Below, piece by piece: positions 5,186 to 63,719 of a DNA stretch of 64,000 bases. Source of the stretch: Armigeres subalbatus (lineage: Eukaryota > Arthropoda > Insecta > Diptera > Culicidae); assembly GCF_024139115.2 (NCBI RefSeq), contig NC_085141.1, positions 177,828,994 to 177,892,993 of the forward strand, written 5' to 3'. The translations under genes were made by a program, and so were the position numbers. The notes below the pieces were generated by a model. That model saw only the letters and a list, made by a program, of their open reading frames with translations. It was not told where the DNA came from and made no database searches. Numbering within the stretch: the stretch's first letter is position 1; each line of letters opens with the position of its first letter.

Positions 5186-6022
5186 ATGGCCATTCGCAGC
5201 ACCTACTTCCAACACAGCCTTCCGTATCGGTACACCTGGAGATCACCACTGCAGACAGAATCACAAATCGACCACGTTCTGATTGATGGACGGCACTTCT
5301 CCGACATTAACGACGTCAGGACATATCGTGGCGCTAACATCGACTCTGACCACTATCTGGTGATGGTTAAACTGCGCCCAAAACTATCCGTCATCAACAA
5401 TGTTCACTACCGACGACCGCCGCGGTACGACCTAGAGCGACTGAAGCAACCTGATGTCACCACTGCATACGCGCAGCATCTCGAGGCAGCGTTGCCGGAA
5501 GAGAGTGAGCTCGATGGGGCCCCTCTTGAGGACTGCTGGAATACGATTAAAGCAGCCATTAACGACGCAGCGGAGAACAACGTCGGGTATATGGGATGAA
5601 GTCGACGGAACGATTGGTTCGACGGACGGATGCGGCGCGGCGGTCGCGCTGCAGCAAGGTACCCGGCAGAACGTGGAACCTTATAGACGGAAGCGGAGAC
5701 AGCAGACCCGCCTTTTCAGGAGAAGAAACGCCGCCTGGAACAGCTGTGCCGTTCTCAAGAAACACGCAAGTTCTACCAGAAGCTCAACGCATCCCGCAAA
5801 GGCTTCGTGCCGCGAGCCGAAATGTGCCGGGATAAGGATGGGAGCATCTTGACGGACGAACGTGTGGTGATCGAAAGGTGGAAGCAGCACTACGAGGAAC
5901 ATTTGAATGGCGCTGAGAGTACAGGCAGTGAAAGTCAAGGCAGCGGAGGAGATGACTACGTCAGTTCAGCGGACGATGGAAGCCAACCAGCCCCCAACTT
6001 GAGGGAAGCTAAAGATCAATAA
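5186..6022 (+). pseudogene. LINE endonuclease C-terminus and linker
   Basis: One frame runs through this stretch with two stops (TGA at 5597-5599 and a TAG near 5682). The start carries the endonuclease C-terminal blocks TWRSPLQTESQIDHVLIDGR and RGANIDSDHYLVMVKLRPKL; the SQIDHV Asp and SDHYLV Asp-His are the conserved catalytic-side residues of APE-type endonucleases. The linker that follows has EKKRRLEQLCRSQETRKFYQ and RVVIERWKQHYEEHLNG, typical of the spacer before LINE RT domains. The frame ends at 6022 after a roughly 20-bp deletion relative to the copy at 32462-33035. Confidence 0.85.
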
Positions 6023-6026
6023 AGCA

Positions 6027-6848
6027 GCTGGTAAGGATGGTATCGGAGCTGAGCTCATCAAGATGGGCCCGGAAAAGCTAGCCACTTGCCTGCACAAATT
6101 GATAGTCAGAATATGGGAAACTGAACAGCTACCAGAGGAGTGGAAGGAAGGGGTTATATGCCCCATCTACAAGAAAGGCGACAAGCTGGACTGTGAGAAC
6201 TTTCGAGCGATCACCATCCTTAATGTCGCCTACAAAGTGATATCCCAGATCATCTTCCGTCGTCTGTCACCATTAGTGAACGAGTTCGTGGGAAGTTATC
6301 AAGCCGGCTTCGTTGACGGCCGCTCGACAACGGACCAGATCTTTACTGTACGGCAAATTCTTCAAAAATGCCGTGAATACCAGGTCCCAACGCATCATCT
6401 GTTCGTTGATTTCAAGGCGGCATATGACAGTATAGACCGCGTAGAGCTATGGAAAATTATGGACGAGAACAGCTTCCCTGGGAAGCTTACCAGACTCATC
6501 AAAGCAACGGTGGATGGTGTGCAAAACTGTGTGAAGATTTCGGGCGAACTCTCCATTCGAATTCGCGCTCGTTCGTTTCGTTCGTTCGAATCACGCCGAG
6601 GACTAAGACAAGGTGATGGACTTTCGTGCCTGTTGTTCAACATTGCGCTAGAAGGTGTCATGCGGAGAGCCGGGTGTAACAGCCGGGGTACGATTTTCAA
6701 CAGATCCAGTCAATTTATTTGCTTCGCGGATGACATGGACATTGTCGGCCGAACATTTGCAAAGGTGGCTGAACTGTACACCCAAAGACAAAGTACATGC
6801 TTGTGGGCGGAACAGAGCGCGACAGGGCCCGCCGGGGAAGCAGTGTTA
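6027..6848 (+). pseudogene. LINE reverse transcriptase domain
   Basis: RT domain of the RTE-like LINE. Motifs in order: KAAGKDGIGAELIK, then WKEGVICPIYKKGDK and FRAITILNVAYKVISQIIF, AGFVDGRSTTDQIF, motif A LFVDFKAAYDSIDR, the RRGLRQGDGLSCLLFNIALE block, and the catalytic FADDMDI near 6720-6740. The frame is open for over 200 codons from 6063. After the VAELYT block a deletion shifts the frame; coding sense resumes with KTKYMLVGGTERDRARRG until the nested MITE starts at 6849. The catalytic Asp pair is intact but the protein is not. Confidence 0.9.
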
Positions 6849-6955
6849 CCCGAGCAGCACAAATCAGACAAATATGGTTGCAATAACTTGATTGTAACTA
6901 AATCTGGTCACATATGAGTTTCAGTAACTTATGTGAAGCATGTGTGCTGCTAGGA
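6849..6955. mobile_element. 107-bp MITE, copy 1, in LINE ORF2
   Basis: Starts CCCGAGCAGCACA and ends with the inverse of TCCTAGCAGCACA, giving 13-bp imperfect TIRs. It is flanked by TA at 6847-6848 and 6956-6957. Removing the element plus one TA joins the upstream frame (position mod 3 = 2) exactly to the downstream frame, and the LINE sequence then reads on without loss. A second 107-bp copy sits at 32902-33008. The TA duplication suggests mobilisation by a Tc1/mariner-type transposase. Confidence 0.85.
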
Positions 6956-6956
6956 T

Positions 6957-7580
6957 ACGATAGACGGGGATACTTTCGAGGTGGTCGAGGAATTCGTCTA
7001 CCTCGGATCCTTGGTAATGGCTGATAACAATGTCAGTCGTGAAATACGAAGGCGCATCATCTGTGGAAGTCGGGCTTACTACGGGCTCCAGAAGAAACTG
7101 CGGTCAAAGAAGATTCGCCACCGCACCAAATGTGTGATGTACAAGACGCTAATAAGACCGGTTGTCCTCTACGGACATGAAACATGGACAATGCTCGAGG
7201 AGGACTTGCAAGCACTCGGAGTATTCGAGAGACGGGTGCTTAGGACCATCTTTGGCGGTGTGCAAGAAGACGGCATGTGGCGGCGAAGAAAGAACCATGA
7301 GCTCGCCCAGCTCTACGGCGAACCCAGTATCCAGAAGGTAGCTAAAGCCGGAAAGGTGCGATGGGCAGGGCATGTTGCAAGAATGCCGGACAGCAACCCT
7401 GCAAAGATGGAGTTCGCTTCCGATACGGCAGGTACGAGACGACGTGGAGCGCATCGAGCGAGATGGGCAGACCAGGTGCAGAACGACTTGGCGAGCGTGG
7501 GGCGTATTCGAGGATGGAGAGATGCGGCCTCAGACCGTGTATTGTGGCGTCAAATTGTTGATTCAGTGTTATCTGTTTAG
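6957..7580 (+). pseudogene. LINE ORF2 C-terminal region
   Basis: Open frame continuing the RTE-like ORF2 after the nested MITE. It has the post-RT block EEFVYLGSLVMADNNVSREI, then YKTLIRPVVLYGHETWTM, ERRVLRTIFGG, and the C-terminal KAGKVRWAGHVARMPD and RRRGAHRARWADQVQNDL segments typical of this LINE type. It ends with the VDSVLSV stop at 7578-7580, followed by the short AT-rich 3' tail. About 200 codons are undamaged, so this end of the insertion is the best preserved. Confidence 0.9.
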
Positions 7581-12800: not shown

Positions 12801-13274
12801 CAGTAGACAAAAGTTGACCGATTTGGATGAAAAAATCACTTCTCGTTTCTTATTTATCACTTCTCACAGTGCGAAGTAAGAATGAGAAATAAGAAGTATC
12901 AACAAAAGAAGTTAAATATATAACATATAACAAAAAGACACGATCCCAGTTTAATTCTCTTGCACCGAAGCAACTGAGGTTTTCGGGAACAAAGCCTCTC
13001 AAATGGAGGTTTCACCGTACCTTAAGACTCGATACTTTAGTTTAGAAGCATATTCCTCATATATTGTTTAACATTTTGTTTCGAATAGGTAGATTGCAAT
13101 GAACATTTTTAAAATCAGTTCATTAGACGTTTTGGTCTTTTCATTTTTTGTAGCACAACCCTTCGTACACTGTGCTGGTTGTGGAGGGCAGGATTCATTT
13201 GGCTTTGATTTGCTGATTGCCATCTTTTTGATTGGAATTGTAAAACATCCGCCATTACGCATTGTTGTTAAGGC

Positions 13275-13535
13275 CTAACGACCAGTTCAACCGAACGACA
13301 TTTTCGACCATATCTCCTTTTGACGGCAAATGACCCGTTTGCCCAAAAAGCATTTCATGCCGTATAACTTGTTCGGTCATAAAGAATGTTCGGCAAAATT
13401 ACTTGTTCGGGTAAATGGCTTCTTCGGCCAAACATCTCATCCGCCCAGCTCATCTTCGGTCCATTTACCGTTTCGGCTAGATGATTTCCGGCGTTGCACG
13501 TTTTATTCGGCCTAATGGAATTCTGCAAAATGGCT
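13275..13535. repeat. Eroded GGCCGAA-type short repeat tract
   Basis: Repeated variants of CGACCATAT, CGGCAAATGACC, TTCGGTCATAAA, TTCGGCCAAACATC and TTCGGCCTAATGG at about 20-bp spacing. This is the vocabulary of the subrepeat that forms the ends of the foldback at 23577-25156. Confidence 0.65.
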
Positions 13536-13856
13536 ATCGGTCGAATGACTCTCCTATTTTTTCGTCAGTTATCATCAATATATTGTTTTTCCTCACTAGA
13601 ATTTTTACTACTTCAGTATTGTGTCGTATTTTTTCTCTCTTCTCCTTTTACACTTTTATTGTGCTGCTTTTTCGTTTCGTCGTAGTTTGTTTCTTGTATG
13701 GCGGAAGGAAATAAAGGAAAGAAGAACAATCAATACACATAAAAAATAGGCGACAATAGAGGATCTACGACGAAGGTTTGTTTTTGTTATGGATAACAAT
13801 GACAAAAATTCGAAAGTTTTTGTCAAAATAAAATATGTAAAAAAGTTCTAGGGTTA

Positions 13857-16619: not shown

Positions 16620-18210
16620 TAATTCTTTATGGAATACCTTCGAAAACATCTCCGGGAATTCCTTCCAGAATACCTCCGGGAATTTTTTTGAGAATTCCTT
16701 CAAGAAATTCCTTCAAGAATTTATCCGAAATATCATTCGAAAATTCCTTTGGTAAGGGGCGATTCAAATATGATGTCCACTAATTTTCGAGATTTGTAGA
16801 CCCCCCTCCCTCCTCTGTCTCGTTTTTTTGTCTAGGTATACAATGTACTGTCACAAAATCTTAGACCCCCTCCACCCCTAAAGCTGTGACATCATTTTTA
16901 AATGACCCTTAATTCGTGCAGGAAATTCTTTTTGTGTTTTTCAAGAATTCCTTCTTTCGAAAATTCCTAGGAATTTATCCGGGAGTACCTTCAGAATTTT
17001 TTTGAAAATTCCGTCAGGAATTCTTCCGGGATTTTTTGGAAAAATTCCCAAAGGAATTCTCGGATGAATTTCCGAAGACTTCCCGAGAAATTCCCTGAGC
17101 AATTCCCGAGGGAATCCTGAGGAAATTCATTCGGAATTCAAGAGAAATTTCCGAAGGAATTGCTCCCGTAATTTCTGCGGGAATTCCTTCGGAAATTTCA
17201 TCGGAAATTCCTTCAAGATTTCCTTCGAAAATTCCTCCTCTCAAAAAAATATTTGGGAATTCCTCCGGGAATGCTTTCGGAAATTTCTCCGGGAATTCCT
17301 TCGGAAATTCCACCGGGAATTATTTCGGGAACTCCTCTGGAAAATCCTTCGGGAATTTCTTTGGCATTTTCTTCGGGAATTCCTTCTGGAATTCTTCAGG
17401 GAATTCCTTCGGGAATTCTTCTAGTAATTTTAATTGTAAATTACTCCTGGAATTCCTTCGGGAGTTTCTCCGGCAATTCCATCGGGAGTTTCTTCGTGAT
17501 TTCTTTCAAAAATCCCAGAAGGAAATATCAGAGGAATTTTGTTAGGAAATCCTGGAGGAAATTCCGAAATAATTCCCGAAAGAGGAGGAATTCCCGAAAA
17601 AACCCGAAGGAAATCCCGAAGAAAATCCCGGAGGAATTCCCAAAGAAATTGCCAGAGGAATATTGCCAAAGGAATTCGTTGATGAATAACCAGAGGAATT
17701 CCCGAAAGAATTACCGGAAGAAATCCTGAAAGAAATCCCGGAGGAATTCCCGAAGGAAATCCCCGAGGAATTTTCGGATGAAATCCCGAAGGAATTTTCG
17801 ATGAAATTTCCGAAGGATTTCCCGCAGAAATTACCGGAGCAATCCCTTCGATAATTTTCTTCGGAAATTTCTGTTGGATTCATTTGGGAATTGCTCCGGG
17901 AATTTATTCGAGAATTCCTTCGGAAATTCCTCCAAGAATTCCTTTGGGAATTCCTACTAGAAATCCCGGAAGAATTCCCGAAGGAATTTAAAAAAAATAA
18001 TCTGAAGGAACTCCCGGAGAAATTCCTAGGAATTTTCAAAATAATTCCAGAAGGAATTCTCGACGGATCTCCCAAAAAAATTCCCAAAGAATTTCCCGCA
18101 CGAATTACCAAAGAAATTTTCGAATGATATTTCGGGTAAATTCTTGAAGGAATTCCCGGAGGTATTCTCGAACGAATTCCCGGAGATGTTTTCGAAGGGT
18201 TTCGAACGGA
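16620..18210. repeat. GAATTCC minisatellite core of the foldback
   Basis: About 1.6 kb of GGAATTCCTTCGGGAATTCC-type units, palindromic at the unit level. A non-repeat 170 bp (about 16745-16915, with a CCCCCCTCCCTCC run) interrupts it. Frames of 158-189 codons on both strands here are artefacts of the repeat. Confidence 0.85.
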
Positions 18211-23034: not shown

Positions 23035-23576
23035 TAAACAAACAGTACTGGCAAAATGGTGCGGTGAAATGTGATCACCTGATATTTTGCAACGCTTATC
23101 GTCAGTTTATTCCTCTCACACCACTCAGTGAATAAAGTTATCGATCGTTGTAAAGTTAGACAATCCTCTTCCGTGGGCACCACAATATACATCTTCAAAT
23201 CATCTGCGTAAACTACCTTGAAGCCTTCATTCAGAACTAAAGCAGCATCGTTGGAATATAGTATGAATATTCATACTATACATACTATGCATGCTATAGC
23301 AAAGGCCCGTGATTGCTTCCTTGTGGGACACCAGACTTATTCGAAAAAACAGCAGATTCACAATCATCAACCTTCACACGAAGTTCACGATCCATTAGGT
23401 ACGATTCCACCCAAGACAAGAGTTGCGTGGAAAATCCAAGACGAGCTAACTTATGCAATAGAATTCTTTGGTCAATTTGGTCGAAAGCTGCCTTTAAAAC
23501 CATTTTGAGACAGCAGAAGGGCTCGTAATTGCTCGATAGTTCCCGACATTGTTTTTATCACCACGCTTGGAAACAG
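23035..23576 (-). pseudogene. Jockey ORF2 reverse transcriptase palm
   Basis: Continues the LINE frame beyond the foldback. Readable blocks are KRGDKNNVGNYRAITS directly at the junction, then AAFDQIDQRILLHKLARLG with a motif-A-like Asp, ESYLMDRELRVKV, KSGVPQGSNHGPLL, and the catalytic VVYADDLKMYIVV block near 23190-23220. A stretch near 23250-23295 is overwritten by CATACTATG-type repeats with stops. Only VITFHRT remains after the palm before truncation. Confidence 0.85.
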
Positions 23577-25156
23577 ATGCTGGGCCATTAGGCCGAATGG
23601 TCACTAGGCCGAACGGTCATTAGGCCGAATGGCCATTAGGCCGAATGCAAACTGGGGAGTGACAAGTGAGTAGTGCGAAGTGAGGAAGAAGGATGAAGGA
23701 AGAAGGAAGAAGGAAGAAGGAAGAAGGAAGAAGGAAGAAGGAAGAAGGAAGAAGGAAGAAGGAAGAAGGAAGAAGGAAGAAGGAAGAAGGAAGAAGGAAG
23801 AAGGAAGAAGGACGAAGGACGAAGGAAGAAAGAAGAAAGAAGAAGGAAGAAGGAAGAAAGAATAAGGAAAAAGGATTAAGAAAGAAGGAAGAAGGAAGAA
23901 GGAAGAAGGAAGAAGGAAGAAGGAAGAAGGAAGAAGGAAGAAGGAAGAATGAAGAAGGAAGAAGGAAGAAGGAAGAAGGAAGAAGGAAGAAGGAAGAAGG
24001 AAGAAGGAAGAAGGAAGAAGGAAGAAGGAAGAAGGAAGAAGGAAGAAGGAAGAAGGAAGAAGGAAGAAGGAAGAAGGAAGAATGAAGAAGGAAGAAGGAA
24101 GAAGGAAGAAGGAAGAAGGAAGAAGGAAGAAGGAAGAAGGAAGAAGGAAGAAGGAAGAAGAAGGAAGAAGGAAGAAGGAAGAAGAAGAAGGAAGAAGGAA
24201 GAAGGAAGAAGGAAGAAGGAAGAAGGAAGAAGGAAGAAGGAAGAAGGAAGAAGGAAGAAAGAAGAAGGAAGAAGGAAGAAAGAAGAAGTAAGAAAGAAGA
24301 TGAAAGAAGGAAGAAAGAAGAAGGAAGAAGGAAGAAGGAAGAAAGAAGAAGGAAGAAAGAAGAGGGAAGAAGGAAGAAAGAAGAAGGAAGAAAGAAGAAG
24401 AAAGAAAGAAGAAGGAAGAAGGAAGAAAGAAGGAAGAAGTAAGTAGGAAAAAGGAAGAAGGAAGAAGGAAGAAGGAAGAAGGAAGAAAGAAGAAGGAAGA
24501 AAGAAGAAGGAAGAAGGAAGAAAGAAAAAAGAAGAAGGAAGAATGAAGAAGTAAGAAGGAAGAAGGAAGAAGGAAGACGGAAGAAAGAAGGAAGAAAACT
24601 AAGAATGAAGAAGGAAGAAGGAAGAAAGAAGAAGGAAAAAGGAAGAAGGAAGAAGGAAGGAGGCAAAAAGGAAGAAGGAAGAAGGAAAAAGGAGGAAAGA
24701 AGGAGGAAAAAGGAAGAAAGAAGGAGTAAGAAATAAGAAGGAAGAAGGAAGAAGGAAGAAAGAAGAAGGAAGAAGGGAGAAGAAAGAAGGAAGAAGGGAG
24801 GAGGAAGAAGGAAAAAGTAAGAAGGACGAAGGAAGAAGGAAGAAGATATAAGGAAGAAGGAAGAAAGAAGAAGGAAGAAGGAACAAGGAAGAAGGAAGAA
24901 GGAAAAAGGAAAGAAGGAAGAAGGAAGAAGAAAGAAGAAAGAAGGAAGAACGAAGAAGGAATAAAGAAGAAGGAAGAAGGAAAAAGGAAGAAGACAGATA
25001 GAAGAAGGAAAGTGCAAGAAGGGAGAAGGAAGGAGGCCTAAGGTGAAGAAAGAACTTCTCATTTTTCACTTTTTCTTCTTTTTGCTAATTCGGCCTAATG
25101 GCCATTCGGCCTAATGTCCATTCGGCCTAATGACCTTCGGCCTAATGGCCTGACAC
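23577..25156. mobile_element. Foldback element: GGCCGAA subrepeat ends, purine minisatellite core
   Basis: A 1580-bp insertion flanked by exact 11-bp direct repeats CTTGGAAACAG (23566-23576 and 25157-25167). Its left end has four tandem units of the type GGCCATTAGGCCGAATGG (about 23583-23645), and its right end four units of the inverse (about 25085-25152), so the termini are inverted and made of short tandem subrepeats. The core is a GGAAGAA tract. Removing the insertion and one 11-bp copy leaves a continuous LINE RT frame. There is no coding capacity. The architecture recalls Drosophila FB elements (established knowledge); relatedness is inference. Confidence 0.85.
23685..25050 (+). repeat. 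(GGAAGAA)n purine tract, about 1.4 kb
   Basis: Nearly pure purine on the plus strand, with a 7-bp GGAAGAA unit that is almost perfect from 23695 to 24290 and increasingly varied (AAAGAAG, GGAAAAA, GGAGG) to 25050. All frames are open, which explains the 480-codon minus frame rich in SSFFLLP and the plus frames rich in EEGRRKK; none is a gene. Such tracts can adopt H-DNA in principle. Confidence 0.95.
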
Positions 25157-25167
25157 CTTGGAAACAG

Positions 25168-25755
25168 GAGTAATGAACGATTGTTTCCAGATCCAAGGAA
25201 ATTCTGCTTGCTGAAGTGAGCGATTGAAAATACTACATAATGGGACTGCTAAAGCATCTAACAATTACTGCTGCTGGCAAACCATCAGGACCAAGTGCGA
25301 AAGTTTCAATTTTTTTTGCAGTAAACGTAACCATTTGCGGCCTGACGGCAAATATACCAAGCTCTTCACGAACGGCATCTTCGATTTCATTCCTTGAGGC
25401 GGGATTAGTCGAGAATTAGGATTCAAAGTGATTTGCAAACAACTGGCTTGATTCAACAGCGGAAGTTGCTGTAGACTCACTCAAATGCACATTGGAAGGG
25501 ATCACTGTACTCTTCCTTTTAGAATTAATGAAGCGCCAAAACCCGCGAGGATTATTCTTCAGATTCGTTTGGACACGTAAAATATACGACTTATAGAGAG
25601 TAGAATTTAAAACTCGATACGCATTGCTAGCATGTTGGAAATTTCGTTTGTTGGTCGTTGAGCGATGACTACGTAGCTTCCTTTGACACACATTGCGTGC
25701 CCTTTTCAAACTACGTAAACGGAGGAGGTGTGCTCCAGGCAGGTGAAGGTGGTGG
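25168..25755 (-). pseudogene. Jockey ORF2 linker and first RT block
   Basis: Minus-strand coding relic. It shows the linker typical before Jockey RT (NAYRVLNSTLYKSYILRVQ, NNPRGFWRFINSKRKST, SSQLFANHFES), then in a shifted frame a GPDGLPAAV segment with an ALGPDG motif and an ASRISLDLETIV or WIWKQSFITPV reading. The frame is broken by small indels (near 25480 and 25410). It stops where the 11-bp direct repeat at 25157-25167 begins. Confidence 0.8.
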
Positions 25756-28204: not shown

Positions 28205-28720
28205 CTTGCTGGTGCTGTAGATCGCCAATTCTGGACTCAAGGATGGTTTTGATGACCCAGGATGTCCCAAAACCATCTGAACATGTCCCTTGATCTTCAG
28301 GAATGTATTATAGATATGGTTGAATACATATCCAAGCTTGAAGCGATAAAAAAATAGTATCGTGGCTGTAAATCGCAAGTTCTGGACTAAAGAACAGTTT
28401 GGATGACCCAGGATATCCCAAAACCATCTTACCATGTATCCTGACCTTTACAAATAAATTATGTGAATAGTTGAATACATATAAAAGCTTGAAGCGACGG
28501 AAAAAACTAGAGTGGTGGCTGTAGATCGCCAGTTCCGAACTCAAGGACGGTTTGGATGACTCAGGATATCCCAAAACCATCTGACCATGTCTCTTGATCT
28601 TTAGGAATATAATATGGATATGGTTGAAAACATATCCAAGCTTGGATCCCCGAAAAAGCTCGCATGGTAACTTGTAGATCGCAAGTTCTGCACCGAGCGT
28701 TCTTTAGAACACTTTTCTTT
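28205..28720 (+). repeat. ~152-bp satellite array, forward orientation, 3+ units
   Basis: CTGTAGATCGC-type landmarks at 28216, 28367, 28519 and 28671 give steps of 151, 152 and 152 bp. Each unit carries TTCTGGACTCAAGGA, GGATGACCCAGGATATCCC, AAACCATCT, TTGATCTT and GGTTGAATACATATC. Better conserved than the inverted array at 26840-27890. Confidence 0.9.
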
Positions 28721-36430: not shown

Positions 36431-37450
36431 GCTGTTACTGGAGCAACTCCAAAGCTTAGTAAGGTCAGTATGGCAACCGACCTGAAGGGAGCTAGCGCCA
36501 AGCCGGTATTGCACGAGAAGAAGGCTACTAAGATCCGATGGGAGAAGGTAGGGCAGGTTGCCGACCCTAAGGAACGACGGAAACCAGTTCCTCCTTCTAC
36601 GAGGACTACCGAAGTTAGCCGGGAGGAAGGCCTGCCCTGAAGGGAAGTTGTGAGTCCCAAAAAGGCGAAGAAGGAGCGAAAAGCAGTAGAGGAGGCAAAG
36701 GCGCCATTGGCCAAGAATAGGGCCCGAAGAGGGACACATTTTCCAATGGTCATGGCAGGAAGGACAGAGGCGAAGCAATTATCGTCAAGGCTGATGGTAA
36801 GAGCTATGCTGACGTTCTTAAGGCTTTGCGGGGCGATAAAAAGCTCACTGGCCTTGGGGATAATGTCAACTGCATCCGCAGAACGAAGAAGAGCGAGATG
36901 ATCCTCGTCCTGAAGCGGGATGCTGCGTGGAAGAGTTCCGCGTATAAAAAGTTGGCAGAAGAGGTGCTGGGTGATGCAGTTCAGGTGAGAGCCCTATGCT
37001 CAGTAGAAGTAATCCAATGCCGAGGCCTAGACGAAATTACCGAAGCCGATGAGCTGGTAGCTGCACTGAGAGATCAGTGTGACGTTGAAATCCAGGATAC
37101 CACGATTCAGTTGCGGAAAGGTTATGCTGGAACGCAGGTTCCCTCATTCCAGGTAGTCGTGGTTGACGCCAAGAGGGACTGGATAAGGTCAAGCTGAATC
37201 GGTATGCTCGGTGAGCGCAAACCAACAACCGCAGGCCGGCTTCATGTGCTTCGATTATGGACATAAGTCATATGACTGCAAAGGTCCTGATCGGAGTTGG
37301 CTTTGCCGCAGAAGTGGAGCTGAAGGTCACAAGGCTCACACCTGCCAGGCTGCACCGCGGTGTTTGATCTGTGGTCCTGGCACAGACAACAAACACCCAT
37401 CCGGTGGGCAGGCCTGTCCGGCCTCCAGACATGCTCGGTCATGCAAGTAG
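36431..37450 (+). pseudogene. R1 ORF1 (Gag-like nucleic-acid-binding protein)
   Basis: Frame pieces 36431-36640, 36650-36901, 36826-37197 and 37211-37450 follow each other with small shifts. The middle has the R1 Gag-like TKKSEMILVLKRDA and SVEVIQCRGLDEITEADEL blocks. The C-terminus has three zinc knuckles: a first with CFDYGHKSYDC, a second with CRRSGAEGHKAHTC (first Cys altered) and a third with CLICGPGTDNKHPSGGQAC. The first 70 codons are Lys/Arg-rich. It ends in TAG 37448-37450 inside the ORF2 start. Confidence 0.75.
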
Positions 37451-38123
37451 CTCAGCTAAATCTCAACCACTGCGAGGCAGCGCAAGCGCTGCTACAACTG
37501 ATGATGTTGCCTTGCTGTCCGACCCGTACCGCATCCCTGCCAAACATAGCAGTTGGGTTGCGGATAAGTCCGGAATAGTGACCATCTGGACTTGCGGGAG
37601 GTACCCCATCCAGGAGATAGTGTCGCCTCCTGATGATGAGGGTTTTGTTATTGCAAAGGTAAACGGAGTTTACTTTTGTAGCTGCTACTGTCCTCCAAGA
37701 TGGAGCATAGAACAGTATACTAGAGTGTTAGATAATCTTGTAGCGAGACTAACTGGTCTTAAATTATTAGTTGTAGCAGGTGACTTCAACGCGTGGGCAG
37801 CGGATTGGGCCTCTCGGTTCACTAACGCTAGAGGTCATACCTTGATAGAGTCTCTAGCGGTACTGAACTTAGTCCTGCTGAACGAGGGCCAAGCGTCAAC
37901 GTTCAGAGAACCGAATGGCGAGTCATGCATCGATGTTGCCTTCTGCAGCGCGGGATGGACTGTGGAGCCTGAATGGAGGATTCACGAAAGGTATACTGCT
38001 ACTGACCATCAGGAAATACGTTTTATGGTCAGCAATACCCCCAACAGAACTACAAGGCGGGTCAGTAAGGCTGACCTAGAATGGCGTACCTCGCAGTTCG
38101 ACCCAGAACTGCTGGAAGAATAA
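37441..38123 (+). pseudogene. R1 ORF2 APE endonuclease
   Basis: The ATG at 37441 overlaps the ORF1 stop in the 10-base string ATGCAAGTAG. The start VAQLNLNHCEAAQALL contains the N-terminal Asn of APE endonucleases. After a frameshift near 37500 the domain continues: DVALLSDPYRIPAKH (the usual catalytic Glu position reads Asp), GVYFCSCYCPPRWS, the catalytic LVVAGDFNAWAADW block, ESCIDVAF and TATDHQEIRF (catalytic Asp-His). About 200 codons are intact up to the stop at 38121-38123. Confidence 0.85.
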
Positions 38124-44739: not shown

Positions 44740-46090
44740 TGGCGGAAAGCCATTTGGCAGAATAATACGTTAAATCGAAAATCAATGAACGTTTGGGCAT
44801 AACGGCTCTGCAACGGAAAACAGTTTTACCAAAAAAATATGTTGGCAAAGTGACATACTACTGAATTGATAATTTGGCCAAAAAGCACTCTTCCCTAATA
44901 CGTCGTTTAGACGAATAGATTATAAGGCCGAAATGATGGTTTGACAGAAAGGGTCATTTGGCCGAAAATGTAATTCGGTTCAACAGCCAAATGTTGATTA
45001 CTGAACGGATGTGGTCAAAACTGGGAGGGAGAAACAGATTCGAAAAATGTGTGTGTCAAGCCGAGCCGAAATCTAGTTGTCAATGTGAGCCGAAAACGAA
45101 ACACTCGACAAGCAATTTTTTTTAAAGGAAATATAACAACAATAGCACACAAAACAAAATTTAGTATTTTCAGGTGGCGCCTACGTTGATTGTTTTTTCT
45201 TGTTGAAAATTTACTTGTTGCATGACGACAGTATATATTAAATTTGATGTGCAGTATCTGCCAAACGACCATTTTGGCCAAACAACTTTTTGGACAAACG
45301 ACTTTTTCGGCCAAATGGCCAAATGGCCGGAACGACAATTTCGACCGTATGTCAATTTCAGCTGAATAAAATTGTCGACCAGGTGAGCTTTGGTCTAATG
45401 GTTTGTTCGGTCAAATGACATATTCGGATAAACACCTTTTGGCATTGTGTCTATCGGCCAAATGGCCTTACTTGCCGTTTGGTCGAAAGTCATTCGACGA
45501 AAAGCCATTTATTCGAATAACAGGCCAATAGCCATATAGGCAAATTCTACGTTTGTCGCCGAATTAAACGTTTGTCCGAAACGGTATTAGATCGAAAATG
45601 GTTTGACTGAAAATTACGTTTGGTGGAAGCGACAAACAGCCGAAAGGTCATTCGATCGAATTACTAATTTGACCGAAAAAGTTGTTTGCCCTAACAGTTT
45701 ATTTGGCTGAAATGGTCGAAAATGTCATTTGACCGACTAGATCATTTGGCCATAAATGCCGTTTGGTAGAAATAGTCGTTTGGCATAAAGAGACATTTTG
45801 CCTGAAAATGTCCTTTTTGCATTTGGCATTTTTTGCCAAATTACTTTTTTTAGCTAAACGATTTTTTTTTGACAAAATGATCAATTCAACAGAACGACAC
45901 TTCCGGCCGAATGCTCATTTCGGCCAAATGACCCTTTCGGCCAATTGAGCTATTCGGCCAACTGTTTTTTCAGCCAAAGGAACTGTTCGACCAAATGACA
46001 TTTTCGGCAAAATAATTTTAGACTAGATGGGTTTTAAAAGAATTGTTTGTTTGGTGAAACGACATATTAGGTCAAACAACTTTCGGCCTT
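44740..46090. repeat. Long eroded GGCCGAA-type repeat tract (1.35 kb)
   Basis: Dozens of variants of TTTGGCCGAAATGNC and GGCCAAACGAC in about 20-bp steps, in both orientations. The longest such tract in the window. Frames here (up to 107 codons) are by-products. The central 45010-45260 part is less repetitive. Confidence 0.75.
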
Positions 46091-49505: not shown

Positions 49506-49560
49506 AATTTAAAAGGCATTTTTCAAATTAAAAGCAATATTAAATTAAACACACAATTGT

Positions 49561-50250
49561 GTGGGGATTGACCTTCCTGCTAAGCAACTTTGGAAGAACA
49601 TTAAACGATTAGGCTTAAAACAAACAAACACTTGTATGGGTGGAGGGGATGTAAGCGCTGATACTCTGAACTCATTTTTTGTTGCTCATTACACTCCATT
49701 TTCATTCAATCAAAATGACGACATTGAAACACACCCGAATTTCTCATTTAGGTGTGTTGACGAAATACTTACTGAGTTTGTTAAATCTTCTTGTGATGCT
49801 GTTGGCAACGATTCAATTCCACTGAAAGTTTTAAAAATGTCTTTAAGTGTTACTCTCTCATACATTCCGGATATCTTTGATTGTTGTATCACTTCCTCAG
49901 ATTTTCCACTTGATTGGAAAATCGCAAAAGTAATTGACCACCCTGTTATTGAAAGAGACTACCGTCCGATTAGCATTCTTTGTGCCCTTTCAAAAATATT
50001 CGAATCACTACTCTCTCAGCAACTGAATGACTACTTGACACACAATGATCTGTTATGTCCATTCCAGTCTGGATATAGGAAATCATGCAGCACCGTAACC
50101 GTGTTTATGTCGAGCAATGTCCATTCGAATGTGACTGCGGACTTTTTTGCGTTCTTGGATGATTACACCAAACAATACGACTTCCAAGATATTTTAGCCA
50201 ATCGTAAAGATCTGCAATGGCTAGTACAAGTGATGATTGAAGTCCTATAA
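49561..50250 (+). pseudogene. LINE reverse transcriptase fragment (CR1/Jockey-like)
   Basis: A 230-codon open frame starting at a GTG-like position, so a fragment. It shows the linker GGDVSADTLNSFFVAHYTP, then RT blocks SCDAVGNDSIPLKVLKMSL, SSDFPLDWKIAKV, ERDYRPISILCALSKIFES and CPFQSGYRKSCSTVTV. Motif A and everything after is lost: the last 45 codons are unrelated, with NLAND-type satellite sequence beginning near 50250. Surprisingly free of stops. Confidence 0.8.
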
Positions 50251-50589: not shown

Positions 50590-51040
50590 GGAAGCATTCA
50601 GGACTTGGTTGATCGGGTTGATTGCATGTTCGGGATTCCTGGACGCGATGCACAGATACATCGTTCAGGATTTGGTCGATCGGCAAGATTACATGTTATG
50701 AACTCCAGGACGTTTTGAAGAATCGAAAGGCGTGTAGTAGCTTGTAAAAGTAATGAGCAAAATCCTATCGGCTCAATGGACCTGCTGGGATATTCAACGA
50801 TGCACGGATACATCGCTCAGGACTTGGTCGGTTGGGCAGATCGCATATTCTGAACTCCAGAGCGTTCCGAACTCCAGAACGAAAAGGCCTGTAGTAGCTC
50901 GTGAAACTAATGAATGAAATCTCATCGGCTCAATAGGCCTGTTGGGATGTTCATCGATACACAGATACATCATTCAGGACTTGGTTGATCGACTAGATCG
51001 CATGATCTGAACTCCAGGATGTTTCGAGACCTTCAAATAG
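50590..51040 (+). repeat. ~152-157-bp satellite, three units
   Basis: CAGATACATC landmarks at 50653, 50805 and 50962 (steps 152 and 157). Units share TCAGGACTTGGTTGATCGG, AGATCGCAT, CTGAACTCCAGGA, CCTGTAGTAGCT and ATCGGCTCAAT. The AGATCGCA...TCTGAACTCCAGGA core recalls AGATCGCAAGTTCTGGACTC in the 28.2-kb array, perhaps distantly related. Confidence 0.85.
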
Positions 51041-55384: not shown

Positions 55385-55462
55385 CTGCCGCTAACCGCAA
55401 GTCGAGCACATCTGTGTATGGGCCTTCATATACAGATGTGCTCGACTTGCGGTTAGCGGCAG
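55385..55462. mobile_element. 78-bp hairpin element, type 1
   Basis: 36-bp arms with one mismatch around a 6-bp loop, starting CTGCCGCTAACCGCAAGTC. Flanked by TA on the left (55383-55384) and AA on the right. The inner arm reads GAGCACATCTG, shared with the solo arm at 36-65 and unlike the 47-kb copy. Confidence 0.85.
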
Positions 55463-55469
55463 AATAGGA

Positions 55470-55860
55470 GGTAAGGAGTTAAGCCAAAAGTCATCTAGTC
55501 GAATCTTGTTTAGCCGAAATAGACGTTTAGCCGAAACGGTTCTTGGATTGAAAACGGTTTGGCCAAAAATTTCATTTCACCAAAGCGACATATGGCCGAA
55601 CTGGTAATTTGGCCGAAAAAGCTATTTCCCCTAAGAAGCCGTGTGCGAAATAATCATTTAGCCGTAATTTAATCTGGCCAACATTGCCTTTTGACTGAAA
55701 TGGTCGTTCGGTCGAACGTGATACATCCGAAAATGTCATTTGCTGAATAGGTAATATGGCCAATTGTTCTTTTCGGCAAACGGCATTTTAAGTCAAATGA
55801 CTTATTTAGTCAAACTACTTTTTAGCCAAATTACCAGTTCGACCGAACGACATACTGTGA
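55470..55860. repeat. Eroded GGCCGAA-type repeat tract
   Basis: Variants of TTTAGCCGAAANGNC and TTTGGCCGAAA at about 20-bp steps, as in 44740-46090. Confidence 0.7.
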
Positions 55861-60643: not shown

Positions 60644-61267
60644 ATGATTCCCAAACCAGTAACTTTTATTGCAGGAGCAACCCCCACAATACTCCAAGTG
60701 AGGGTCAATCCTATTTCATGTCCTCATATTAAAATAAGCGTTCTAGGAACAGATATTGTAGCTCTACTAGACTCCGGAGCTGGAGTCAGTGTGATAAGCG
60801 AGTTAAACTTGATTGAGTCCCATGGCTTCAAGATTTTTAAGTCCAATGTGAAAGTTAGCACAGCGGACGACACTGTGCATACTTGCCTTGGATACGTAAA
60901 TATACCGTTCACACTCGGAGACGAAACTAGAGTCATTGCGACACTGGTAGTCCCCGAAATTAAGAAGCCTTTGATTTTAGGCATGGACTTTTGGAAAGCT
61001 TTCCAAATAAAACCCATGATAAATAGTAAAAATAGTCTCAAGGAACTGGACTTAACTTGGTCATCTAATTTGACCGGTGAAACCGTAATTAATCACTTGA
61101 AGGTTGAAAACGATATTATTCCCGTAGCTAAAGATCCCATTTCATTGTCAATTCACTTTCCCGCGGAACCTGAGGGAAATGGTGATATTTTCATTCAATC
61201 ACGTCCTGAAGAAGACGACTCACTGGACGTCCCTACACTAGATCTACCTAATGATCCAGAAAACTGA
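60644..61267 (+). CDS. Retroviral-type aspartic protease
   Basis: Open frame of 207 codons with the active-site LLDSGAGVSVIS at about 60758-60795 (catalytic Asp in DSG) and the ILGMDFWKAF flap-distal block at 60975-61005 that marks Ty3/gypsy proteases. It processes the Gag-Pol polyprotein in the particle. It ends with TGA 61265-61267, overlapping the RT frame, which starts one base back (-1), so a programmed or accidental frameshift links them. Confidence 0.8.
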   Translation: MIPKPVTFIAGATPTILQVRVNPISCPHIKISVLGTDIVALLDSGAGVSVISELNLIESHGFKIFKSNVKVSTADDTVHTCLGYVNIPFTLGDETRVIATLVVPEIKKPLILGMDFWKAFQIKPMINSKNSLKELDLTWSSNLTGETVINHLKVENDIIPVAKDPISLSIHFPAEPEGNGDIFIQSRPEEDDSLDVPTLDLPNDPEN

Positions 61268-62463
61268 TCGATAGCATTGAAACAGAGCATGTCCTTTCGG
61301 TTTCGGAAAGGCAACGACTTGTAGAAGTTTTAAAGCAGTTCGCTTACACCAGCGATAAACAGCTTGGTAGGACATCTCTTTTGGAACACCACATTGAACT
61401 GGTGGAAGGAGCAAACTTAAAAGATCTGCCTATGTACAGATACGCTCCAAAGATATGGGATCAAATAGAAACCGAACTAGAAAGATGGAAAGAACTTGAG
61501 GTAATAGAGGAATGCGTAGCCGAATACGCAAACCCGTTAGTTCCTGTGAGAAAAGCGAACGGCAAGATCAGAGTATGCCTCGACTCTCGCCGTATCAATT
61601 TGATCACGAAAAAAGACGCCTATCCGATGAGAAACATGTCGGAAATTTTTCACCGTCTACAAAAAGCGAAATATTTTAGCGTCATAGACCTTAAGGACGC
61701 TTATTTTCAAATTCCCCTCAACGAAAGGTCCAGGAACTTCACAGCGTTCCGTACCCCAAAAGGTTTATATCGGTTTAAAGTTGTACCGTTTGGTTTAAAA
61801 AATGCGCCATTTACGATGAATCGTCTAATGAACCGCGCCATTGGGTTCGATTTAGAACCCAAAGTCTATACTTACCTGGACGACATAATAATAGCAACTG
61901 AAACTCTTGAAGAACATTTCAGATTGCTCGAGGAAGTTGCGAAGCGTTTAAGAAACGCTGGTTTGACAATTTCCGTCGAAAAAAGTAGATTTTGTCGAAA
62001 GCAAGTTAAATATCTTGGTTACCTGTTAACTGAGAATGGACTGACAATCGACAGTGCAAAACTCGAGCCAATTTTAAATTATCCGGCACCAAAAACAGTA
62101 AGGGAGGTTAGGAGGTTGTTAGGTTTAATGGGGTTCTACCAAAAATTCATTCCCCGCTACAGTCACTTGACGTCACCAATAACGGATTTGTTAAAAAAGG
62201 GCCGTAAATTTAAATGGTCAGATGAGGCGAATGAAGCTCTAACACAGTTGAAAGCAGTGCTAACTTCTGCCCCAGTTTTATCAAATCCTGACTATTCAAA
62301 ACCATTTATATTAGAAACAGACGCGTCACAACTAGCAGTTGGCGCAGCACTTCTACAAGAATTTGAGGAGGGCATGCGCATTATCGGTTATTATAGTAAG
62401 AAATTATCTAGCACACAAAGAAAGCATTCCGCAACTGAAAAGAATGTCTCGGAGTACTGCTAG
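61264..62463 (+). pseudogene. Reverse transcriptase and start of RNase H
   Basis: Open 400-codon frame. RT blocks in order: ANPLVPVRKANGKIRVCLD, LINLITKKDAYP-type region, motif A YFSVIDLKDAYFQIPL, PFGLKNAPFTMNRLM, and the catalytic VYTYLDDIIIATE near 61870 (YLDD). The thumb KYLGYLLTENGL and connection PRYSHLTSPITDLLKK follow, then RNase H FILETDASQLAVGAALL with its first Asp. The frame ends in a stop 62461-62463 only because one A is missing in a homopolymer near 62440-62450; catalytic residues are all present. Confidence 0.85.
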
Positions 62464-63719
62464 CAATTGAGAATTTCAGGCATTATGTAGAAGGCACCAC
62501 CTTCAGAGTAATAACAGATGCCAAAAGCCTTACTTGGCTTTTCTCGATCTCCGCTGCAATCGCTAATTCGCGCTTGTTGCGCTGGGCACTTAAATTGCAG
62601 TCGTACGACTTCATACTGCAATACCGAAAAGGCAAGGATAATATTTTAGCCGATTGCCTTTCTAGAATAGAAACAATTAACGTAAATGACCAGAATTATA
62701 TAGATCTAAGGCAGGATATTATCAATAATCCAGGAAAACATTCAGATTTAATGGTAGCAGGTGATAAAATTTATAAATACACTGAAAATCCTGGCAGAAT
62801 CAGTGACAGACGTTTCCAATGGAAATATTTTCCACCAGAAACCGAACGCTCAGATATTATTAGCCAAGTACATGATTCTGCCCATCTTGGCTTTGATAAA
62901 ACGTTAAACGCCCTAAAAGAGAAATACTTTTGGCCTAAAATGTCAGCAGACACCAAAGTTTACTGCAAATCTTGCATTCAATGTAAGAAATCGAAAGCAG
63001 TAAACATAAATACAGTACCACCGATGGGATCACAAAAAAAATTTTGTGACCACCCATGGCAGCTAATTACATTAGATTATGTCGGACCATTTCCGTCCTC
63101 AGGGAAATCTAGAAATACATGTCTATTGGTTGTAACTGATGTATTCACGAAATTCGTCTTAATACAACCTTTCCGACAAGTAACGGCTTCAACACTTGTT
63201 CAATTTTTAGAACAATCGGTATTCCTGTTGTTTGGTGTTCCAGAAATGGTACTTACTGACAATGGAACACAATTTACGTCCAAAGAATTCGCGAGATTAT
63301 TAGGTAATTATGGGGTCAAACACTGGCTAACACCTGCTTATCACCCACAGGTGAATAATACAGAGCGGGTTAATAGGGTAATTACGACTGCCATTAGGGC
63401 TACAATTAAGGGAAATCACAAAAACTGGTCAGACAATATCCAAGAGATAGCTAATGCAATTCGGACGACAGTACATGAATCCACAAAATACACGCCGTAC
63501 TTTTTGACATTCGGTAGAAACCAAATTTCGAACGGATCAGAATACGAAGACATGAGAAATACCAATGCAGATAACTTTATGTTGACGAATCAAGAGAGAA
63601 GTAAATTATATGACGAAATCAGAGAAAATTTAGTTAAGGCTTATCAAAACAATCGAAATATTATAATTTACGTTCTAATAGCAGAGCTCCCAAATATCAG
63701 GGTGGCGAGAAAGTTTTAA
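62448..63719 (+). pseudogene. RNase H end and integrase
   Basis: Continues the polyprotein in the next frame: ALLAIENFRHYVEGT-type region, ITDAKSLTWLF with the RNase H Asp, then the integrase. The zinc-binding part has HDSAHLGFDKTLNALKEKYF and CKSCIQCKK (HHCC). The catalytic triad is readable: ITLDYVGPFP (Asp), MVLTDNGTQFTSKEF (Asp) and NNTERVNRVI (Glu). The frame is open for over 380 codons up to 63719, where an indel near 63670 shifts the C-terminal part. Confidence 0.85.

What the first reader, a model, noticed from the sequence alone, without database searches (positions are those of the whole stretch)
23566..25167. A minisatellite moves as a unit: foldback element splitting a LINE reverse transcriptase
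Seen: exact 11-bp direct repeats (CTTGGAAACAG) flank 1580 bp whose two ends are inverted tandem arrays of an 18-bp GGCCGAATGG-type unit and whose core is a GGAAGAA tract. The LINE RT frame reads straight across if the block and one 11-bp copy are removed. Known: FB elements of Drosophila have inverted ends built of short tandem subrepeats. Inference: a non-autonomous foldback element whose body is pure minisatellite, which would spread long purine tracts through the genome.
Basis: partly seen in the sequence, partly recalled or inferred. Interest (0 to 1): 0.87.

Follow-up and report, generated by a model that had tools for sequence, protein, structure and literature searches.

The report
Jumping foldback element carrying purine minisatellite
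A short, gene-less "cut-and-paste" jumping element, whose folded-back ends enclose a long run of the repeated letters GGAAGAA, has landed in an old retrotransposon; its relatives sit at many other places in this mosquito-like genome, so this kind of element spreads purine-rich DNA around the chromosomes.

Summary
The finding is real and its reading mostly right. A 1,582-bp element (23576-25157) has inverted arms of tandem 16-bp (not 18-bp) units around a 1,354-bp GGAAGAA tract (98% purine). The target-site duplication (TSD) is 9 bp, TTGGAAACA; the 11-bp repeat adds two chance bases. Seven LINE relatives fetched (of 11 spanning the site) lack the insert and keep one TSD copy. The left terminus occurs 1,393 times in the genome (up to 2 mismatches; reversed control 0). 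Of 73 loci examined, 52 have both ends: 30 perfect 9-bp TSDs, 8 perfect 8-bp, 9 with one mismatch, 5 none; between loci 0 of 2,652 match perfectly. All 52 carry the tract; one pair at unrelated sites has nearly the same tract, so it moves with the ends. This fits non-autonomous foldback Mutator-like elements (MULEs), known from Aedes aegypti. Two MULE transposase loci of this genome have similar 15-bp-period arrays, but no transposase copy with this family's own ends was found. Local slippage is refuted. New member of a known kind; its kilobase purine body is the unusual point.

The parts
23567..23575 (.). left target-site duplication TTGGAAACA
   Evidence: one copy (TTGAAAACA in 5 of 7, a further variant in L095 and L097) in the fetched empty LINE relatives
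23576..25157 (+). whole element, 1,582 bp, starts GATGCTGGGCCATTAGG, ends CCTAATGGCCTGACACC
   Evidence: termini shared with other copies; 43 of 52 copies start GATGCTGGG
23583..23647 (+). left arm: four tandem 16-bp units (CATTAGGCCGAATGGY)
23648..23682 (+). left spacer, GTGAGTAGTGCGAAGTGAG-type
   Evidence: similar in other copies of the same terminus family
23683..25036 (+). purine minisatellite core, GGAAGAA unit, about 193 copies
25037..25087 (+). right spacer (AACTTCTCATTTTTCACTTTTTC...)
   Evidence: similar in other copies of the same terminus family
25088..25150 (-). right arm: four tandem units (ATTCGGCCTAATGGCC), inverted relative to the left arm
25158..25166 (.). right target-site duplication TTGGAAACA
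23400..23575 (-). host LINE, reverse-transcriptase region, one side of the insertion (stretch tested)
25167..25350 (-). host LINE, reverse-transcriptase region, other side of the insertion (stretch tested)

Best explanation
It is a non-autonomous foldback DNA transposon of the Mutator-like (MULE) kind. Shown: a defined unit (short terminus, inverted arms of tandem 15-16-bp units, purine minisatellite core) inserts at unrelated sites with 8-9-bp duplications, empty sites exist, and the core goes along with the ends. Inferred: a MULE transposase made elsewhere binds the repeated arm units, cuts the element out and inserts it; the core grows and shrinks by slippage between jumps, which would explain tract lengths of 416-2,449 bp.
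For: Window empty site: 7 of 7 fetched LINE relatives are continuous across the junction with one TSD copy. Family: 30 perfect 9-bp and 8 perfect 8-bp TSDs among 52 copies with both ends; 0 at lengths 6, 7, 10, 11, 12; 0 of 2,652 cross-locus pairs perfect, 2 with one mismatch over 8 bp. Paralogous empty sites with one TSD copy for six other copies: L011, L051, L062, L075, L077, L079. Tract in 52 of 52 copies; L039 and L040, with different TSDs and flanks, have tracts of 1,473 and 1,490 bp, 97.8% identical in aligned bases and 92% counting gaps. 1,393 left termini in the genome against 0 for the reversed pattern. MULE signs: 8-9-bp TSDs and subrepeated inverted ends are what PMC5225508 (passages and two sections read) reports for Aedes aegypti MULEs; 108 MULE-domain places in this genome; both MULE loci that I fetched, L098 and L099, carry 15-bp-period arrays of a related motif, in L099 inverted on the two sides of the transposase frame.
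Against: No transposase-bearing copy with this family's termini was found. Of the 25 MULE places on C1, 22 lie in the span of the 100 listed exact termini (100 of 1,393 shown); compared by eye, none is within 5 kb, nearest about 13.6 kb. L098 and L099, picked for score and frame length and not at random, lack these termini, and in L098 an array was seen on one side only. 21 of 73 loci lack one or both recognisable ends; 5 of 52 with both ends have no TSD (L033, L043, L050, L068, L072). One of 10 sampled arm sites (L087) is a short element without a tract, and L060 keeps only a trace of one.
Confidence: 0.88

Rival explanations
1. Local birth: the block arose in place by slippage or duplication inside the LINE, and the flanking repeat is a by-product.
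For: The core is a slippage-prone 7-bp repeat and tract lengths vary between copies.
Against: Seven LINE relatives are continuous with one TSD copy; 1,393 termini occur in the genome; in up to 300 bp of flank, 45 of 52 copies show no tract or arm unit and 7 show one stray unit.
Confidence: 0.01
2. A foldback element of another superfamily (for example P-like, as Galileo is) with 8-9-bp duplications.
For: Foldback structure arises in several superfamilies; [quoted passage not shown] No transposase with the family's ends was found here.
Against: A mixture of 9-bp and 8-bp TSDs is what PMC5225508 reports for Aedes MULEs; both MULE loci fetched here carry 15-bp arrays of a related motif.
Confidence: 0.08
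3. The tract is not carried but re-grown or acquired independently after each insertion (arms move, core is secondary).
For: Tract lengths differ widely; distant pairs align poorly over the tract when gaps are counted; L087 lacks a tract.
Against: 52 of 52 copies have it between arms and spacers; L039 and L040 have near-identical 1.5-kb tracts at unrelated sites.
Confidence: 0.05

Closest known systems
Muta families (Muta1-14), Mutator-like elements of Aedes aegypti (PMC5225508; passages and sections 5 and 7 read)
   Same: 8-9-bp TSD; inverted ends made of a short terminal motif plus tandem subterminal repeats (Muta1: nine 12-bp units with 3-4-bp spacers, that is 15-16-bp spacing; Muta5: 8-bp motif plus nine 15-bp units); many non-autonomous derivatives with varying unit number; Muta1 classed as a type 2 foldback element.
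   Different: Its derivatives are described with heterogeneous insides including gene fragments; no word beginning with satellite or purine, and no 'simple sequence', occurs in the main text. The Muta end sequences are in supplements that I could not read, so identity with a Muta family is open; Muta1's terminal motif is a 10-bp imperfect palindrome, which GATGCTGGGT is not by inspection.
Tetris, foldback transposon of Drosophila virilis (PMC4079207; abstract and passages read)
   Same: Non-autonomous foldback, 8-10-bp TSD, tandem repeats inside the element that seed satellite arrays.
   Different: Its repeats are about 220 bp and part of the inverted ends; here a 7-bp purine repeat fills the core between the ends.
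FB elements of Drosophila (recalled, no call)
   Same: Inverted ends built of short tandem subrepeats, 9-bp TSD.
   Different: Subrepeat lengths differ by recall; no sequence comparison was made.
Transposable elements that propagate minisatellites in rice (Inukai 2004; seen only as a citation and title in PMC4079207)
   Same: By its title, a transposon disperses a tandem repeat.
   Different: Different host; the paper itself was not seen, so its structure cannot be compared.

Membership tests
Mutator-like elements (MULE superfamily) | 8-10-bp target-site duplication | tested here: met
   30 of 52 perfect 9 bp, 8 of 52 perfect 8 bp; 0 of 2,652 cross-locus pairs perfect
Mutator-like elements (MULE superfamily) | long terminal inverted repeats (often above 100 bp), in Aedes mostly with short subterminal tandem repeats | tested here: met
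   inverted arms of tandem 15-16-bp units, between 2 and 9 units detected per arm in complete copies; the window copy, at about 65 bp per arm, is on the short side of the length criterion
Mutator-like elements (MULE superfamily) | transposase-encoding copy with the same termini | tested here: inconclusive
[quoted passage not shown]
   GATGCTGGGT and GGTGTCAGGC do not fit the description in PMC5225508 by inspection; the Muta1 sequence itself was not available
Muta5 (Aedes aegypti) | 8-bp terminal motif plus nine 15-bp subterminal repeats of given sequence | not testable with these tools
   architecture is compatible; the sequence is in a supplement that could not be read
Drosophila FB (features recalled) | inverted ends of tandem subrepeats and 9-bp TSD | tested here: met
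   8 of 52 copies have 8 bp instead
Drosophila FB (features recalled) | sequence relationship to FB or NOF | not tested
   no FB sequence on hand; so 'works like', not 'is a' FB

The most novel reading that the evidence does not exclude
Two terminus families (GATGCTGGG and GGTTTAGGG starts) carry a purine core bordered, by inspection, by similar GTGAGAAGTGAGTAG-type spacers. A selfish polypurine minisatellite cassette may thus have been kept by, or swapped between, foldback MULEs because purine tracts help the ends come together or extrude (triplex or hairpin), making these elements the main source of GGAAGAA arrays in the genome.
Probability: 0.2. Interest if true: 0.65.

Novelty: new member of a known kind. 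Interest (0 to 1): 0.42.

Why it matters
It shows at base-pair level how a simple purine repeat of 0.4-2.4 kb can be dispersed by cut-and-paste transposition rather than born in place. If the small sample holds (9 of 10 sampled arm sites carry a tract in one orientation or the other) and if most of the 1,393 left termini belong to elements of median length, the family would add on the order of 1-2 Mb of purine-strand DNA (inference; broken copies are included in the count). Such tracts are candidates for triplex structures, replication stalling and assembly errors, and TSD-bearing copies give ready presence/absence markers.

Tried and rejected
Considered and rejected: local slippage or a LINE-internal duplication; a literal 11-bp TSD (counted from the shared ends no copy exceeds 9). 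Looked for the autonomous partner: MULE-domain search (108 matches, 150 of 167 candidates scored), comparison by eye of 22 of its 25 C1 places with the 100 listed termini (nearest about 13.6 kb), two fetched MULE loci (related arrays, other termini), and frames in nine arm loci that were odd (no transposase recognised by eye, no domain search run on them). Text search for arm motifs in papers: 40 papers, 20 listed, none on transposons by title. Searches for foldback or minisatellite-carrying MULEs listed Muta1, Tetris, Tm1 and others, but I saw no description of this family; Repbase, Dfam and TEfam are not held, so it may be catalogued there. PMC8449440 (abstract only) concerns MITEs that target microsatellites. 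PMC8277862 (passages asked for) had the word Aedes only in its reference list. Tm1 (PMC3169594) was seen in listings only.

Samples were not random: the 39 loci besides the window in the first set came from a full-element query that favours tract-bearing copies (40 of 7,671 candidates scored); 33 came from a left-arm query (40 of 941 scored, 7 of the 40 already fetched). The 10 sites are spread over the first 100 of 336 places, all on C1. Dropped before the TSD count: 21 of 73 loci without both ends (16 of 40 and 5 of 33). For each remaining locus the pair of ends with the best TSD was taken; nearly every locus offered one pair.

Full report
WHAT IS THERE. The element proper runs 23576-25157 (1,582 bp). 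It begins GATGCTGGGCCATTAGG and ends CCTAATGGCCTGACACC. The core (23683-25036, 1,354 bp) is 98% purine with a 7-bp GGAAGAA unit. The duplication is TTGGAAACA, 9 bp; the C and G that make it look like 11 bp are the last and first bases of the element matching its neighbours.

EMPTY SITE OF THE WINDOW COPY. The joined flanks (16 of 16 candidates scored) matched LINE copies elsewhere. Eleven listed places other than the window have a match that spans the junction; seven of them were fetched. All seven run on across the junction with one TSD copy: TTGAAAACA in L091, L092, L093, L094 and L096, and further variants in L095 (with one extra base) and L097. One relative (L092) has an open frame, FPWIWKQSFVTPVFKRGDKNNVANYRAITS, through the point of insertion. 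In the window the same frame reads FPWIWKQSFITPVSKRGDKNNVGNYRAITS once the element and one TSD are left out. The window's LINE copy is otherwise broken by stops and frameshifts, and by the coordinates it lacks some 155-170 bases that several relatives have between query positions 96 and 97.

THE FAMILY. A full-element search gave 39 other places, fetched as L009-L047. A left-arm search gave 33 more, L048-L080. With the window copy that is 73 loci; 52 have both ends recognisable with up to two mismatches per end (24 of 40 and 28 of 33). Of the 52, 30 have perfect 9-bp TSDs, 8 perfect 8-bp, 9 one mismatch, 5 none. No copy has an exact repeat of length 6, 7, 10, 11 or 12 at the shared ends. Of 2,652 cross-locus pairs none matches perfectly and 2 match over 8 bp with one mismatch. 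Six other copies have paralogous empty sites with one TSD copy among the loci already fetched: L011 (98.0% to L058, 87.6% to L056; three more distant relatives show a 1-base gap there), L062 (96.9%, and that empty site is in this very window at 7150-7407), L077 (94.9%), L079 (91.8%), L051 (81%, imperfect TSD) and L075 (80.7%, window 16748-16911). L056 shows a 2-base difference at or near the junction in all of its relatives, and the flanks of L037 are a satellite, so neither is counted.

THE CORE TRAVELS. All 52 copies have the tract (416-2,449 bp, median 1,314), although in a few it is interrupted by other sequence (L050, L064, L072). L039 and L040, with different TSDs and unrelated flanks, have tracts of 1,473 and 1,490 bp, 97.8% identical over aligned bases and 92% counting gaps. 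Other close pairs differ more in length, so slippage seems to go on. Of the 5 arm-query loci without a right end, four still have the tract and L060 only a trace. Among 10 sites taken from the first 100 of 336 exact 31-mer arm matches (336 against 0 for the reversed control; sites), 7 carry the tract in the standard orientation, 2 in the opposite orientation behind a different spacer, and 1 (L087) is a short element without a tract. The left terminus occurs 1,393 times with up to two mismatches, against 0 for the reversed pattern. These counts include broken copies.

WHAT KIND. The TSD length, its 8/9 mixture and the subrepeated arms fit the Aedes aegypti MULEs of PMC5225508, whose Muta1 is classed there as a type 2 foldback element. 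This genome (1.336 Gb, three large contigs, unnamed) has 108 places that match the MULE transposase domain. I fetched two, picked for score and frame length. L099 has arrays of about 15/32-bp period inverted on either side of a 329-aa frame (62-nt arms 81% complementary), with units such as ATTCGGGGTAATGGCA (picked by eye) against ATTCGGCCTAATGGCC here, 13 of 16 identical by position. L098 has a TTATGCCAAACGACT array on one side only. So the architecture is that of local MULEs, but a transposase copy with the family's own ends was not found. That step remains inferred.

MECHANISM, shown and inferred. Shown: insertion of a unit with 8-9-bp duplication; core carried along; arms of variable unit number that, in the window copy, pair strongly as a single strand. 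Inferred: MULE transposase acting in trans; arm units as repeated binding sites (compare the passage on Galileo in PMC4079207); tract growth by slippage. No function of the tract is shown.

NOVELTY. Foldback MULEs and transposons that carry tandem repeats are both known. A family in which the sampled copies nearly all have a kilobase-scale purine repeat as their body was not described in the listings and passages that I saw, but repeat libraries are not held here. I rate it a new member of a known kind.

Noticed in passing
window 44740-46090, 55458-55850, 13260-13540: Decayed arrays of 16-17-bp GGCCAAATGACC-type units; inverted pairs of 18 nt or more in the first two stretches, none in the third; probably other foldback MULE remnants.
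   Followed up: partly
window 7150-7407 and 16748-16911: Empty sites: relatives of these stretches elsewhere carry the same element (copies L062 and L075), with one TSD copy here.
   Followed up: yes
window 61255-63719: LTR-retrotransposon-like frames with RT, RNase H and integrase domains; described only.
   Followed up: no
window 6003-6917, 37368-38123, 49549-50250: Further LINE-like pieces: RT domain, endonuclease domain, and a weak RT match below the Pfam cut-off.
   Followed up: no
window 28214-28644 and 50646-51017: Two medium-length tandem arrays, periods 153 and 157 bp.
   Followed up: no
L014, L015, L032, L039, L040, L041: Second terminus family (GGTTTAGGG start, same CCTGACACC end) with the same kind of purine core and, by inspection, similar GTGAGAAGTGAGTAG-type spacers, suggesting a shared or swapped core.
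   Followed up: partly
L087, from about 145 in the orientation: Short related element without a purine tract whose right end looks like the inverted left end (GATGCTGGGTCATT on both sides).
   Followed up: no
L088, L089: Purine tract in the opposite orientation behind a different spacer: perhaps another subfamily.
   Followed up: no
L099 1094-1234, 3401-3478, 3539-3634: MULE transposase frame flanked by inverted arrays, with two opposed arrays on its upstream side.
   Followed up: partly
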